This document shows, piece by piece, positions 3,030 through 11,386 of a DNA stretch of 35,178 bases; position 1 is the stretch's first letter, and the number at the start of each line of letters is the position of its first letter. The DNA is from Anaerolineales bacterium (lineage in GTDB: Bacteria; Chloroflexota; Anaerolineae; Anaerolineales; Villigracilaceae): positions 1-35,178 of the forward strand of contig JAEURH010000031.1 of NCBI GenBank assembly GCA_016789365.1, given 5' to 3'. The notes below the pieces were generated by a model, which saw only the letters and a program-made list of their open reading frames with translations, did no database searches and had not been told where the DNA came from. The position numbers were made by a program, and so were the translations under genes.

Positions 3030-4412
3030 TTATTTATTGCTTCCGTTATATTTTTTCAAAACCATGCGTGTTTCTGTGCGTTTAACTCCTTGTACCGTTC
3101 GAATTTCTTCAATTAAATTGTTCAATGCAGAAACATTTTCAACATTGATAAATGCGCTGATATCAAAGTCACCTGTGATTTCGTAAACATTGGAAACATT
3201 TGTAAACCCACGCATCCGACGAACCACCGAAGACGTGTACACATGCGATTCGACTTCGACCATTAACATCGCACTGATATCTCGTGGAATCACATCGATC
3301 TCTCTACCCGTGACTTGCTCAGCGATCTCCAAAATGTCCGCATCGAAGAGTTGTTTTCTTTCATCGCCGATATTTTTGATTCTTGAAACAATTACTTCCA
3401 ATTCAGCATTGCTGACTTCGATGTCATATTCTTTCAAACGTGCAGCGACTGCGCTTTTACCTGTGTATTTATCAATGACAATTTTTCTTTCACGCCCAAG
3501 CATGGCTGGGTCAAATGGTTCATAAGTTCTTGGGTCTTTCAACACACCATTCGTATGGACTCCGCTTTTGTGGCTGAATGCGTTTTGACCTGTAATCGGT
3601 TTGTTGGGAGATAGAAAGAAGCCAGATATTTTTTCGAGATAACTGGAAAGTTCCATCAACAGTTGAATGTTATATTTTTGAATCCCCTCCAAATTATGAA
3701 AAGATAAAATCGCTTCGGCTAAATCGGGGATGCCAGTGCGTTCGCCTAATCCGTTCACTGTGGTGTGAATACAATTTGCACCTGCACGAATCCCTGCCAT
3801 GGCATTTGCAAGTGCAAGTCCATAATCATCGTGGCAATGTAAATCAATTTGGCATGAAAGCAATGACTCACGCAATGCAGAGACTCTTTCAAACATGGTA
3901 TGTGGTTGCATGATTCCCAAAGTATCTGCAAAACTGATTCGATCTGCGCCTGATTCGATAGCGGCATTACAAATTTGAACGAGAAATTCAAAATCAGTAC
4001 GAGTTGCATCTTCTGGTGTGTAGCGGACTTTTAAACCTAAACTCTTTGCATAAGAAATATGCTCACGAATAATTTCAATGGCTTGTTCTTGTGTTCGATG
4101 AAGTTTGCTATCCAAATGAATCTTGGACGTAGCATAAAAAATGGCAACACGATTTGCACCACAGACTTTGGCACGGTCAATGCTTGGGCGAGATGCAATG
4201 CTGTGGGCGACCACCTCAGCATGAAGTCCGAGAGAGGCGATTTTTTCTATTGCTTTGGCAACATTGGGCGAAACAGATGGATCGCCTGCTTCAATCATGT
4301 CCACGCCAATACAATCTAGCATTTTGGCAATTTCAATTTTTTCTTCCACACTGAAGTTAACATACGGTGTTTGTTCACCTTCACGCAATGTTGTATCTAA
4401 AATTTCAAGCAT
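3030..4412 (-). CDS. lysS: Homocitrate synthase with C-terminal Lrp/AsnC-type RAM domain
   Basis: 460 aa. Residues 1 to about 265 are the HMGL-like TIM barrel: DTTLREGEQ at the start, VNFS, TSKIHLDSK, RYTPEDATRTD, the metal-binding HCHDDYGLALANA, and TTVNGLGERTG. A linker domain with GQNAFSHKSGVHTNG follows. Residues about 380-456 form a second, unrelated domain: SAMLMVEVES, YEITGDFDIS, LNNLIEEIRTVQGVKRTET is the pattern of the ligand-binding RAM domain of Lrp/AsnC regulators, here without any DNA-binding part. The enzyme condenses acetyl-CoA with 2-oxoglutarate, the committed lysine step; the RAM domain probably binds lysine for feedback control, as inferred from archaeal homocitrate synthases that carry it. 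The start has GAGGA at normal spacing. 2-isopropylmalate or citramalate synthase is less likely, since those end in the LeuA dimer regulatory domain. Confidence 0.85.
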   Translation of the reverse strand: MLEILDTTLREGEQTPYVNFSVEEKIEIAKMLDCIGVDMIEAGDPSVSPNVAKAIEKIASLGLHAEVVAHSIASRPSIDRAKVCGANRVAIFYATSKIHLDSKLHRTQEQAIEIIREHISYAKSLGLKVRYTPEDATRTDFEFLVQICNAAIESGADRISFADTLGIMQPHTMFERVSALRESLLSCQIDLHCHDDYGLALANAMAGIRAGANCIHTTVNGLGERTGIPDLAEAILSFHNLEGIQKYNIQLLMELSSYLEKISGFFLSPNKPITGQNAFSHKSGVHTNGVLKDPRTYEPFDPAMLGRERKIVIDKYTGKSAVAARLKEYDIEVSNAELEVIVSRIKNIGDERKQLFDADILEIAEQVTGREIDVIPRDISAMLMVEVESHVYTSSVVRRMRGFTNVSNVYEITGDFDISAFINVENVSALNNLIEEIRTVQGVKRTETRMVLKKYNGSNK

Positions 4413-4634: not shown

Positions 4635-4644
4635 CCTTTTTGTA

Positions 4645-4660
4645 TTACCCAAATGGATAA
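4645..4660. promoter_or_regulatory. Degenerate TACCC/GGGTA palindrome between lysS and gltB
   Basis: TTACCC-AAAT-GGATAA, one mismatch from a perfect dyad. It lies between the divergent promoters, 11 nt upstream of the lysine operon -35 box and about 20 bp upstream of the perfect gltB site. Its spacing to the lysine promoter differs from the other sites, so its role there is uncertain. Confidence 0.45.
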
Positions 4661-4678: not shown

Positions 4679-4721
4679 TACCCATATAGGGTATTGAAAA
4701 TAGTTTTTTGCTCACTATCAT
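4679..4721 (+). promoter_or_regulatory. gltB promoter with nitrogen-type operator
   Basis: The perfect palindrome TACCC-ATATA-GGGTA (4679-4693) directly abuts TTGAAA (4694-4699), followed after 16 nt by TATCAT (4716-4721). The centre of the palindrome falls near -41 relative to the expected start, the usual place for a class II activator. The same arrangement is seen before the sRNA, amt and glnA promoters. Confidence 0.65.
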
Positions 4722-7700: not shown

Positions 7701-9558
7701 TGGTCAAGGTGCCAAGCCCGGCGAAGGTGGACATTTACCTGCGCGTAAAGTGACTCAAAAAGTTGCGAATGCACGCCATGCTCAAAAAGGTGTTGATTTA
7801 ATTTCGCCATCGAATAATCATGATATTTATTCCATTGAAGATTTGGCGCAATTTATTGAAGAACTAAAAACAATAAATCCAAAAGCGCGCGTGGCTGTAA
7901 AAGTTCCTGTTGTGCCGGGCATTGGCATCATTGCAGTTGGTATTGCAAAAGCCGAAGCCGATATTATTTACTTAACAGGCTTTGATGGTGGAACAGGTGC
8001 AGCACGTTCACATTCATTAAGATATGTTGGTTTGCCTGCTGAAATTGGAATTGTAGAAGCGCATCGTGCTTTAAGTGAATCTGGTTTGCGCGCGAAAGTG
8101 GAGATTTGGGCTGATGGTGGAGTCCGCTCCGCGGATGACACAGTTAAGTTAATGTGTTTGGGTGCAAATCGCATTGGCTTTGCTACATTACCAATGGTTG
8201 CAATTGGTTGTACGATATGTAGAGATTGTCAAAGTGGCACATGCCATGTCGGTATCACCACCCAACTTGAAACAAAAGATGAAGCGACTCATTTAGGCAT
8301 CAAACATTTTGCTCCGCGAGATTTTGAAAGTGCAACGCAGTCATTGGTTAATGTGTTTACAGGTTTAGGCGATGGGGTAAAACAAATTGTTGCCAAACTT
8401 GGTTTTGATAATGTGCAAGATATTGTCGGAAGGTCTGATTTGCTCGTGCAAGTATCACATTGCGAAAAAATTGATTTGAATGAAATGCTCATCCCTGCTG
8501 ATGAATATTTATTAGCAAAACAACCTGTAAAAATTTCACTGCCTGTAAATGAAACAGTGAGTATTGACCGTGGTCCATTGCATCGTCCACGTAATCACTT
8601 AACAACTGTAATTTCAAACCTTGTGATGGAAAGTTTTACAACCTATCAACAAGACGTGGTTTTGTTTGAAGATGATAAAGTCACGCCTGTTGACCGTGCG
8701 TTAGGTACGCATTTGACTGGTGCATTGACTCGCTTCAAAAAGAATTGGGATTGGTCACCGGGGCATGGTGGTTTAGGTGGGAATCGTGAAACGTGGCGTT
8801 TGCCAATGAAGAAACAAGAAATAGATGCTGATTCTGTGCCACGTACATCATTGCACTTTACCAGCAGTTCTGTGCCAGGCAATGGATTAGGTGCTTATAA
8901 TGCTGACCCTGTTCATATTCTTGTAGAAGGTGGTGCACAAGATGGAGTTGCTAAAGGAATCTCTGGTGGGCGCGTTGTGATTATGAAAGGCTATAACCAT
9001 GATGGTAAGTTGATTGATGGTTCTGTTGGGAAAAGCCTTGCCTATGGTGGTATTGGTGGCACTGTGATTGTGCAAGGCAATGCAGACTCACGTGCTTGCA
9101 TTCGTTTGTCCGGTGCAGATGTGATTATTGGTGGTGAAATCACGAAGCCATTAAATGATAGTCTTGGATTCATTGGAGCACGCGCAAACATCAAAGGCTT
9201 CTTATGTGAATATATGACATCTGGTCGTGTAGTAGTGCTTGGTGACCCAGGTCCATGGATGTGTGCAGGTATGACAGGTGGTGTTTTATATTTACGTTTG
9301 CAACCACATTTGAATTTTGACCAATCTGCGATTCAAAGAAGGTTGGCAAAAGGTGCTAAAGTGGTTGTACAAGAAGTGAATGAAAATGATTTGAAAAATT
9401 TGAAAGAGTTGCTCACTGTCTACACCGAAGAACTCAAACACAATCATCAAAATGAAGAAGCGTATAAAGTGAATAATCTATTGGTAGATTGGAAGAATAC
9501 ATTTGTAAAAGTGATTCCATTATCACAACAAGAAGACCAAAGATTCTCAACAGAATAA
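4762..9558 (+). CDS. gltB: Glutamate synthase large subunit (GOGAT)
   Basis: 1598 aa. The ATG at 4762 is chosen because GAGG precedes it; an upstream TTG frame at 4708 would lie within the promoter. An N-terminal prosequence of about 36 residues ends at Cys37 (ERDACALV), the class II glutamine amidotransferase nucleophile. Then come the central domain, the FMN/2-oxoglutarate domain with GQGAKPGEGGHLPARK, and the 3Fe-4S cluster cysteines C1150, C1156 and C1161 in the spacing C-X5-C-X4-C, with an extra cysteine at 1153. The GXGXG beta-helix (GGxGGxxxVxG-type repeats, about 1360-1540) closes the protein. It transfers the glutamine amide to 2-oxoglutarate. No small subunit (gltD) is adjacent, so the electron donor is either ferredoxin or a GltD encoded elsewhere. 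It ends at a terminator shared with the candidate sRNA. Confidence 0.95.
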   Translation: MKNILVNTEDDQQKKNNLFNWLTAEHTKTWLEERDACALVASVRKNGEASHGNLKRALAALSIMGHRSGEVNGEGDGCGVMTDIPRLLWSQALEQEGKPGWLAEDRRFFVGHLMIPNTETELSNLKLQVITMLKEKGIDLLLERPILTRPQVLGKMAQQQAPYLWQIAGMVSSGPIEHVERTLFQLGLYIEKNTNVSIASLSSNVVVYKVRGSIETLYQYYPELRNPDFTTAITIGHARYSTNTATSFERVQPFSLLGHNGEINTIARLREQSEMLGVDLPRGGSDSQDLDRLLETLIHQYHFSLTESMELAFPPLISEVEKLSPELQTIYKYYRQAFGPFAQGPAGIISRYGDECVFSVDALGLRPLWFGDTEKEYFFSSEKGVYHLDTMNVDPIPLSPGEKMRLRIHRGRNVEVFDYPAIQQRMLNLSIRRFGSLETMSRRLQHQDESQTRFILDLKPDSPNLDNRLSAFGWGREDREWVSELAKNGVDPISSLGFDGPLAPLSSERQNIADYFKEAVAVVTNPAIDREREVEHFSTQIVLGSRPPLMPNELGNDVTFTLDTPLLLEYPSGAVETIASDSGCGTLHQLFSKFSEPQIAHIQTVTQPNENTEQALERIAQKSIESVKNGARIVLLDDSSAFQNENGWLDPMLVLSIVDLALRRTFIEVNTSEAPTPLSLNINGKIDLGLMASHHSINLRRQASIVLRSGAIRNLHDLIMSIGMGADAVSPYLIFESATKDKVELTNEEINTRLKHVLKALRSGVEKCTSTMGIHESRGYGRLFASIGLSPQVASALGTVNYGGSSQGGLQWKDIDADIEARAKSYHSVGRGELSRVNHFYPKIWKAAGKLGKQESTWSEYEAHTQSTAKSNPVTIRHILDFRYQNESNIDSQKVDASITSHQLPFLIASMSFGSQGEVAYRAYAEAAFRLKMLSVNGEGGEIPDLLGRYPFNRGIQIASGRFGITAETINATNLIEIKVGQGAKPGEGGHLPARKVTQKVANARHAQKGVDLISPSNNHDIYSIEDLAQFIEELKTINPKARVAVKVPVVPGIGIIAVGIAKAEADIIYLTGFDGGTGAARSHSLRYVGLPAEIGIVEAHRALSESGLRAKVEIWADGGVRSADDTVKLMCLGANRIGFATLPMVAIGCTICRDCQSGTCHVGITTQLETKDEATHLGIKHFAPRDFESATQSLVNVFTGLGDGVKQIVAKLGFDNVQDIVGRSDLLVQVSHCEKIDLNEMLIPADEYLLAKQPVKISLPVNETVSIDRGPLHRPRNHLTTVISNLVMESFTTYQQDVVLFEDDKVTPVDRALGTHLTGALTRFKKNWDWSPGHGGLGGNRETWRLPMKKQEIDADSVPRTSLHFTSSSVPGNGLGAYNADPVHILVEGGAQDGVAKGISGGRVVIMKGYNHDGKLIDGSVGKSLAYGGIGGTVIVQGNADSRACIRLSGADVIIGGEITKPLNDSLGFIGARANIKGFLCEYMTSGRVVVLGDPGPWMCAGMTGGVLYLRLQPHLNFDQSAIQRRLAKGAKVVVQEVNENDLKNLKELLTVYTEELKHNHQNEEAYKVNNLLVDWKNTFVKVIPLSQQEDQRFSTE

Positions 9559-9559
9559 T

Positions 9560-9600
9560 CCCTTTGGGTAATTGATAATAATTGTTCTATTGAATAGAAT
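9560..9600 (+). promoter_or_regulatory. Orphan promoter with nitrogen-type operator after gltB
   Basis: CCC-TTT-GGGTA (9560-9570) is followed at once by TTGATA (9572-9577), a 17-nt spacer and TAGAAT (9595-9600). Dyad, -35 and -10 have the same relative order and spacing as in the gltB, amt and glnA promoters. No protein gene begins before the terminator at 9659. Confidence 0.6.
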
Positions 9601-9606
9601 TCAGGA

Positions 9607-9696
9607 ATGGTTGGCTTACGTTTCTAGCCTATACCTCTCCTTGTTAGCCCTCATGGGCAATGACGTGAATAATTTTTTATTCACGTCATTTTTCTT
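9607..9696 (+). ncRNA. Candidate nitrogen-regulated small RNA
   Basis: The stretch from the predicted start (about 9607) to the terminator at 9659-9696 is roughly 90 nt and has no plausible gene; the only ATG frame is six codons (MVGLRF). It contains the pyrimidine-rich TATACCTCTCCTTG, complementary to Shine-Dalgarno-like sequence, which would be single-stranded upstream of the terminator stem. The element is supported by promoter plus terminator architecture, not by homology. It could instead be a processed 3' end of the gltB transcript. Confidence 0.5.
9659..9696 (+). terminator. Strong intrinsic terminator after gltB/sRNA
   Basis: A perfect 14-bp stem (9659-9672 with 9677-9690; core TGACGTGAATAA) with a TTTT loop, followed by TTTCTT. 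It would end both gltB and the short RNA and separates them from the ammonium transporter promoter. Confidence 0.85.
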
Positions 9697-9763
9697 AATG
9701 CTCCATTTGGGTTAGAAATATTTTACTTTTTATTACCCAATCAAAATAAAAATACCCGTAAGA

Positions 9764-9807
9764 TACTCCATAGGGGTAATAGCCTTTCTATCTCGATTCC
9801 ATACAAT
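9764..9807 (+). promoter_or_regulatory. Ammonium transporter promoter with nitrogen-type operator
   Basis: TACTC-CATAG-GGGTA (9764-9778) with one mismatch in the dyad lies 23 nt ahead of TACAAT (9802-9807); the -35 region (ATAGCC or AATAGC) is weak, as expected of an activator-dependent promoter. Further half-sites, TTGGGTT at 9708, TTACCCAA at 9733 and TACCC at 9753, lie upstream. Confidence 0.55.
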
Positions 9808-11341: not shown

Positions 11342-11386
11342 TACCCGTTTGGGTAATAGACTTACCCTACCCACAAACCCTATAAT
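11342..11386 (+). promoter_or_regulatory. glnA promoter with nitrogen-type operator
   Basis: TACCC-GTTT-GGGTA (11342-11355), a perfect dyad, lies 25 nt ahead of the consensus -10 TATAAT (11381-11386). The best -35 candidate, TAGACT at 11357-11362, follows the dyad with an 18-nt spacer. Expected start is near 11393, leaving a leader of about 40 nt with AAGGAG. Confidence 0.7.

What the first reader, a model, noticed from the sequence alone, without database searches (positions are those of the whole stretch)
9560..9696. Orphan nitrogen-type promoter driving a short RNA between gltB and amt
A dyad, TTGATA-17-TAGAAT and a 14-bp-stem terminator enclose about 90 nt without a gene. A CCTCTCCTT stretch could pair with Shine-Dalgarno regions, such as the AAGGAG before glnA. 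The layout parallels nitrogen-regulated sRNAs of other phyla, but the sequence is not one I recognise.
Basis: partly seen in the sequence, partly recalled or inferred. Interest (0 to 1): 0.8.

Follow-up and report, generated by a model that had tools for sequence, protein, structure and literature searches.

The report
Nitrogen-linked small RNA of Anaerolineales bacteria
A short RNA gene next to the ammonium-uptake and glutamine genes of an uncultured Anaerolineales bacterium is conserved in related genomes; it carries a segment that could cover the ribosome-binding sites of messages and looks like a new nitrogen-linked regulatory RNA whose targets are still unknown.

Summary
Between gltB and amt lies a free-standing small-RNA gene: operator dyad (9556-9572), -10 (9595-9600), RNA from about 9607 with core CUCUCCUUG (9635-9643), a GCCC/GGGC hairpin and a terminator (9659-9690). 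Two close relatives keep 54/58 and 55/58 bases of the RNA body, while the terminator drifts with pairing kept. Covariance models, motif scans and reading give 21 copies in 20 of 57 genus genomes, at or within 4 kb of glnA, amt or gltB. Fifteen have their own dyad promoter, spaced like glnA's; six lie in the amt 3' UTR, core 13-30 nt after the stop codon. Rfam has no match. No convincing copy was seen outside the genus in 400 genomes drawn from the order, only the stronger hits being read. Most likely it is a trans-acting sRNA, co-expressed with glnA and amt, that blocks translation by pairing with Shine-Dalgarno sequences. Transcription, nitrogen control and targets are inferred. Target tests gave one post hoc lead (sugar-type binding protein), a null for glnA and a failed prediction.

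The parts
9556..9572 (+). operator dyad TAATCCCTTTGGGTAAT (TACCC-N4-GGGTA type), overlapping the gltB stop codon
9572..9577 (+). -35-like hexamer TTGATA, overlapping the dyad end; no shared -35 among copies
9595..9600 (+). -10 hexamer TAGAAT, 22 nt after the dyad's AAT
9607..9695 (+). predicted small RNA (start inferred from the -10; end at the T-run)
9609..9635 (+). hairpin 1, GGU.GGCU / AGCC...ACC; 2 of its 3 outer pairs change on both sides in the 5-sequence alignment
9635..9645 (+). conserved core CUCUCCUUGUU, complementary to AACAAGGAGAG (Shine-Dalgarno type)
9647..9658 (+). hairpin 2, GCCC-UCAU-GGGC
9659..9695 (+). intrinsic terminator, 14-bp stem and T-run
9699..9715 (+). second dyad (TGCTCCATTTGGGTTAG), 65 nt upstream of the amt promoter dyad
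9764..9782 (+). amt promoter dyad TACTCCATAGGGGTAATAG; -10 TACAAT 21 nt after its AAT
11342..11359 (+). glnA promoter dyad TACCCGTTTGGGTAATAG; -10 TATAAT 23 nt after its AAT
4679..4693 (+). dyad TACCCATATAGGGTA upstream of gltB (lacks the AAT; its spacing to a -10 was not measured)
4642..4657 (-). dyad TCCATTTGGGTAATAC between gltB and the divergent homocitrate-synthase-like gene

Best explanation
A genuine small-RNA gene. A regulator that binds the TACCC-N4-GGGTA dyad, probably as an activator placed at about -42 where a -35 box would be, switches it on together with glnA and amt (and probably gltB), presumably under nitrogen limitation. The RNA (about 85-90 nt here) folds into hairpin 1, an exposed CUCUCCUUGUU core, hairpin 2 and a terminator. 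The core pairs with Shine-Dalgarno sequences (AAGGAGA) of a set of mRNAs and lowers their translation. In some relatives the same RNA is part of the amt 3' UTR instead of having its own promoter. Shown by sequence: conservation of the body, pair-preserving changes in terminator and hairpin 2, the shared promoter layout, and the nitrogen-locus context. Inferred: transcription, nitrogen control, activation rather than repression, trans-action, and translational repression.
For: Body identity 54/58 (G011) and 55/58 (G004) against 76% at gltB third codon positions and 55% in the downstream spacer for G004. In G011 the downstream amt is a different paralogue (35% identity), yet the RNA stays. R1, built from 5 sequences, ranks 13 hits at E <= 0.0012; the 8 outside its build set all carry the core (one, G019, as CUCUCCUAAG) and lie at a nitrogen-assimilation locus. 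On the 15-sequence alignment 94.2% of cells pair, 17 of 19 pairs change on both sides, covariation 0.73 against 0.21 shuffled and at most 0.12 slid. Dyad-to-minus-10 gap is 21-22 nt in all 13 stand-alone copies listed and, by eye, in 2 more; 22-23 in 26 of 26 glnA promoters listed (G051 was not in that list). As background, 208 of 3311 TAAT/GAAT anchors (6.3%) have a -10-like hexamer at 21-23. Six of six copies without a dyad promoter start 13-30 nt after the amt stop.
Against: No transcript data. Targets unresolved: no better own pairing for glnA (P 0.41); G019, whose core is CUCUCCUAAGU, has no ACTTAGGAGA start site among its 13 pattern hits. Core accessibility is only moderate when upstream bases are included: mean P(unpaired) 0.70 or more in 6 of 19, median 0.57, window 0.43. 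Hairpin 1 is weakly conserved (64% of cells paired) and G023 has a degenerate core inside a stem. The dyad at 2 mismatches is not clearly above its reversed control genome-wide (30/26/30 against 19/21/21). One search's alignment was fitted to the structure, so its counts lean towards it. 7 of the 27 genus genomes with this glnA lack a clear copy.
Confidence: 0.66

Rival explanations
1. It is only the gltB transcription terminator with a chance promoter-like stretch; no separate RNA with a function.
For: It lies directly after gltB; the sigma-70-like site alone is at chance level; the terminator dominates folding.
Against: The body before the terminator is better conserved than the terminator and the spacer beyond it; the same core and hairpin recur after amt, after a second glutamine synthetase gene and before glnA, 15 of 21 with their own dyad promoter.
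Confidence: 0.07
2. It is a cis-acting leader or riboswitch/attenuator for the next gene (amt or glnA).
For: In many genomes it lies upstream of amt or glnA.
Against: It ends in a strong terminator, and where amt or glnA follows a separate dyad promoter stands in between. In G011 the downstream amt is a different paralogue; in G009, G040, G002, G048 and G027 the RNA lies almost 4 kb upstream of glnA. No Rfam riboswitch or leader match to it.
Confidence: 0.06
3. It is a real small RNA but works otherwise: as a protein-binding decoy, a sponge for another RNA, or a general anti-Shine-Dalgarno brake on translation rather than a regulator of particular mRNAs.
For: No target is established; the core resembles the 3' end of 16S rRNA (recalled), and AAGGAGA-type start sites are common.
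Against: For one binding-protein family own pairs are better than swapped ones (P 0.0002 for 14 genomes; 0.002-0.003 with one clade collapsed; 0.014 for 7 not found through the pattern). That test is post hoc and not corrected for relatedness.
Confidence: 0.21

Closest known systems
GlnZ of Enterobacteriaceae (abstract seen, PMC9731577)
   Same: A nitrogen-limitation sRNA from the 3' UTR of a nitrogen-assimilation mRNA (glnA), with a conserved seed and links to carbon/nitrogen balance; 6 of 21 copies here lie in the amt 3' UTR.
   Different: Parent gene is amt, not glnA; 15 copies have their own promoter, including the window's; the core is complementary to Shine-Dalgarno sequences, while GlnZ pairs far upstream of sucA's start; Hfq and RNase E dependence unknown here.
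NsiR4 of cyanobacteria (abstract PMC9196836; passages of review PMC9170634)
   Same: sRNA under a nitrogen regulator, acting near ribosome-binding sites.
   Different: NtcA-controlled in a different phylum; no Rfam match here; different operator (NtcA's site is recalled); gifA and pirA homologues were not looked for.
IsrR and FsrA, C-rich sparing-response sRNAs of Firmicutes (passages of PMC9410917)
   Same: C-rich single-stranded region(s) beside hairpins, aimed at Shine-Dalgarno sequences; in IsrR conserved 5' stems and a poorly conserved terminator.
   Different: Iron control; other sequence and phylum; IsrR has three C-rich regions, here one core is shared by the copies.
sRNA154 of Methanosarcina mazei (passages of review PMC9170634)
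   Same: Nitrogen-linked sRNA acting on the nitrogen assimilation network.
   Different: Archaeal, NrpR-controlled (recalled), acts on nifH, nrpA and glnA mRNAs; no homology was tested beyond Rfam.

Membership tests
Nitrogen-regulated trans-acting sRNA (functional class) | independent RNA gene with own promoter and terminator, conserved as RNA | tested here: met
   15 stand-alone copies, conserved body, covariation; sequence evidence only, no transcript
Nitrogen-regulated trans-acting sRNA (functional class) | expression changes with nitrogen supply | not testable with these tools
   only the promoter architecture shared with glnA and amt
Nitrogen-regulated trans-acting sRNA (functional class) | base-pairs with defined mRNAs | tested here: inconclusive
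   glnA null, P 0.41; binding protein P 0.0002-0.016, post hoc; G019 prediction not met
GlnZ family | located in the glnA 3' UTR | tested here: not met
   window copy lies after gltB; the 3'-UTR copies lie after amt
GlnZ family | released by RNase E with Hfq | not testable with these tools
   none
Any Rfam 15 family (riboswitch, leader, sRNA) | covariance-model match at or above the gathering score | tested here: not met
   0 matches in the window; in 9 loci with copies only two sub-threshold matches at E <= 0.5, both outside the RNA
cis leader / riboswitch of amt or glnA | lies in the 5' UTR of the regulated gene, co-transcribed with it | tested here: not met
   terminator plus a separate dyad promoter before the next amt or glnA; RNA kept when the amt gene differs; co-transcription itself not measured
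CRP/FNR-type class II activator site | 14-bp 5-N4-5 dyad centred near -41.5 with no -35 box | tested here: inconclusive
   geometry fits; the regulator was not identified and the family signature is recalled

The most novel reading that the evidence does not exclude
A lineage-specific carbon/nitrogen-balance sRNA: under nitrogen limitation a not yet described activator of Anaerolineales turns on assimilation genes and this RNA, which shuts off translation of sugar-type periplasmic binding proteins (and perhaps glutamate dehydrogenase). During evolution the RNA has changed places between a stand-alone gene and the 3' UTR of amt while staying in the same regulon.
Probability: 0.25. Interest if true: 0.78.

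Novelty: new member of a known kind. Interest (0 to 1): 0.6.

Why it matters
If right, it is a new RNA family with a predicted nitrogen operator in a group of uncultured bacteria for which my two paper searches listed no described regulatory RNA. It also gives a set of natural variants in which one sRNA is either a gene of its own or part of the 3' UTR of a transporter mRNA, so how sRNA genes are born from, or absorbed into, mRNA tails can be studied directly.

Tried and rejected
The 15-bp palindrome at 9585-9599 as operator: rejected because G004 breaks it.

glnA as target: own pairing no better than swapped (P 0.41, 20 genomes).

Target search with extended complement plus ATG: one search gave 17, 21 and 20 sites in G000, G004 and G011 (reversed control 0, 1, 0); one search gave 13, 12, 8, 12 and 14 in G019, G052, G040, G027 and G018 (control 1, 1, 2, 5, 3); one search gave 21, 3, 17, 13, 20 and 17 in G049, G055, G048, G002, G030 and G020 (control 4, 0, 1, 1, 3, 2). 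I read the genes behind all sites, 30 of 59 and 44 of 91. Recurrent families: binding protein (7 of the 8 genomes, all but G019), argininosuccinate-synthase-like, glutamate-dehydrogenase-like (G040, G048, G002), cystathionine-synthase-like. These names, except the binding protein (Peripla_BP_4), come from reading the sequences. Orthologues keep strong Shine-Dalgarno sequences anyway, and binding-protein genes in genomes without the RNA have similar leaders (G046, G031), so recurrence alone proves nothing. The binding-protein test used 14 of the 20 sRNA genomes: G025 and G051 gave no start in my start finder, G002 had an ambiguous start, G020, G023 and G030 had no hit at 1e-40; for G009 one of two genes was used, for G040 a contig-end fragment; two paralogue types are mixed. 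Own pairing was worse than the mean of the others in G019, G009 and G014.

A hit in sister-genus genome G057 (L266, core-like CTCCTCCTTAGT after a surE-like gene, no dyad seen) was taken as chance. G035 has a degenerate CATCTCCTCTTTC element before glnA and was not counted. The other R1/R2 loci that I read are bare terminators or unrelated; weak hits without a locus, and L155, were not looked at; most loci were only scanned with a core pattern. AlphaFold, Foldseek, plasmid, phage and E. coli searches were not used.

Full report
What is there. Named relatives are Anaerolineales/Anaerolineae MAGs, for example ES-bin-309, whose contig length of 129131 equals that of G049's contig. The promoter alone is no better than chance.

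Close relatives. A DNA search of 151 genomes found the segment in G004 and G011 (E 1e-51 and 4e-44); the other hits at E <= 1 (81 genomes had one) were short fragments of at most about 50 bases. In both relatives it follows gltB. The body from CAGGAATGG to GGGC keeps 55/58 and 54/58 bases. The terminator arms are largely rewritten in G011 (55% identity) with pairing kept; in G004 they keep 82%. The spacer beyond is 55% (G004) and 48% (G011) identical, and gltB third codon positions 76% (G004, last 4500 nt) and 74-78% (G011, last 300-900 nt; longer stretches lose the frame). In G011 the following amt is a paralogue at 35% identity, so the RNA is not tied to one amt gene.

The family. More distant copies were first seen by reading and pattern: G049 between gltB and amt, G020 directly before glnA, G055 before amt. 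Model R1, built from 5 sequences, searched 201 genomes: 30 had a hit at E <= 1, of which 16 were recognised as members on reading and a 17th (G051) later. The 13 hits at E <= 0.0012 are all members, 8 of them outside the build set. A motif scan added G048 and a second copy in G025; model R2 (15 sequences) added G051 and G023. The total is 21 copies in 20 genomes: G000, G002, G003, G004, G009, G011, G014, G018, G019, G020, G023, G025 (two), G027, G030, G040, G048, G049, G051, G052, G055. R2 on 400 genomes drawn from the order, genus members included, gave 46 genomes with a hit at E <= 0.05; I read 13 of the 14 fetched loci outside the genus and all 13 are bare terminators. R2 with laxer filters on the 37 other genus genomes plus G057 gave hits at E <= 0.5 in 30 of 38; a core pattern over the fetched loci, and reading of eight, showed no clear member.

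Of the 57 genus genomes, 27 hold the window's type of glnA (73% identity or more, one of them a 113-residue piece) and 20 of these have the RNA; none of the other 30 do (Fisher P 7e-10, not corrected for relatedness).

Anatomy. The shared core is YUCUCCUURGU or close to it (variants: CUCUCCUUAGU in G052 and G040, CUCUCCUAAGU in G019, CUUCUCUCUUUGG in G023). It is followed by a hairpin, mostly CCC-N4-GGG, and a long terminator, and preceded by a weaker hairpin often of the form CAGYC...GRCUG. On the model-fitted alignment of 15 copies, hairpin 2 and terminator pair in 96.7% and 100% of cells, with changes on both sides in 3 of 4 and 12 of 12 pairs; hairpin 1 pairs in only 64%. On the MAFFT alignment of 5 the covariation score is also above all 500 shuffles. 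In the window the core is mostly unpaired if the RNA starts at about 9607. With upstream bases included it can pair with AGGA; over 19 copies the median P(unpaired) is 0.57.

Where the copies lie. Four are between gltB and amt (G000, G004, G011, G049); G055's lies before amt, with no gltB in the 6.3 kb held. Six are in the amt 3' UTR, with the core 13-30 nt after the stop (G003, G014, G019, G025 first copy, G051, G052). Five lie after a second glutamine synthetase gene (G009, G040, G027, G030; G002 by reading only), one beside the homocitrate-synthase-like gene (G048), and four before glnA (G018, G020, G023, G025 second copy).

Promoter. Thirteen stand-alone copies and two more by eye have a dyad of the TACCC-N4-GGGTA type whose AAT is 21-22 nt before the -10. 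All 26 glnA promoters's list have 22-23; G051, not in that list, has its dyad further upstream of glnA. The amt promoters of G000, G004, G011 and G049 have 21. The gltB dyad at 4679 lacks the AAT and was not scored. No -35 sequence is shared. This is the layout of a class II activator site (inference; the 5-N4-5 spacing recalls CRP/FNR-type sites, from memory). Genome-wide at 2 mismatches the motif is only slightly above its reversed control. Among the sites with at most 1 mismatch in G000 are glnA, gltB/homocitrate synthase and the region upstream of an argininosuccinate-synthase-like gene; the other two have no such context. The regulator is unknown.

Function. The core is complementary to AAGGAGA start sites, which suggests translational repression as for C-rich sRNAs of Firmicutes. 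I looked for targets in two ways. Extended complements before ATG gave lists of ordinary genes. Own-versus-swapped duplex energies gave nothing for glnA (P 0.41). For a periplasmic binding protein of sugar type (Peripla_BP_4) they gave P 0.0002 (14 genomes), 0.002-0.003 (one clade collapsed, 11), 0.016 (one paralogue type, 10) and 0.014 (7 genomes not found through the pattern). G049 shows a 13-nt perfect match. Against this, G019, G009 and G014 pair worse with their own gene than with the mean of the others, genomes without the RNA have similar leaders, and the gene was chosen after looking. I treat it as a lead.

Known relatives. Rfam has no match in the window at gathering scores, and none to the RNA in 9 loci at E <= 0.5. 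By function the nearest are GlnZ (abstract), NsiR4 (abstract; review passages) and IsrR/FsrA (passages). Paper searches: nitrogen + sRNA + Chloroflexi (16 papers, 12 listed, none on point by title; one, PMC2864571 on candidate structured RNAs, was not opened), Anaerolineae + small regulatory RNA (1 paper, off topic by title), and Anaerolineae, nitrogen regulation, transcription factor and glnA (at least 3 of 4 terms; 10 of 144 listed, none of these with Anaerolineae). They showed no description of it; the library lacks most subscription journals.

Verdict. A real, genus-level small-RNA family by sequence evidence, linked by promoter and place to nitrogen assimilation; mode of action plausible, targets open.

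Noticed in passing
window 9699-9715 and 9764-9782; L065 6746 and 6811, 6977 and 7040: The dyad often comes in pairs 63-67 nt apart (about six helical turns) before amt and before the sRNA of G049, suggesting two bound regulators.
   Followed up: partly
G000:C398:5032-5047 and G004:C63:63668-63683: The same dyad lies upstream of an argininosuccinate-synthase-like gene, on the opposite strand, so the regulon may include arginine synthesis.
   Followed up: no
window 3030-4412 (- strand): A homocitrate/isopropylmalate-synthase-like gene with an AsnC-type ligand-binding domain, next to aconitase and isocitrate/isopropylmalate-dehydrogenase-like genes, lies divergent from gltB with a dyad between them; probably lysine or leucine synthesis tied to nitrogen.
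   Followed up: no
L072 (G025): Two copies of the small RNA in tandem between amt and glnA: the first in the amt 3' UTR, the second with its own dyad promoter; a possible snapshot of a 3'-UTR RNA becoming a separate gene.
   Followed up: partly
L080 / L254 (G035:C39:6053-6172): A degenerate version of the RNA (CATCTCCTCTTTC core) directly before glnA, with a TATAAT but no dyad that I could recognise.
   Followed up: no
G048:C25:9798, G002:C222:2169, G040:C295:26289: Glutamate-dehydrogenase-like genes (named by reading) with start sites of the form TTACCAAGGAGAATAA, a biologically sensible target; orthologues in the other genomes could not be searched.
   Followed up: no
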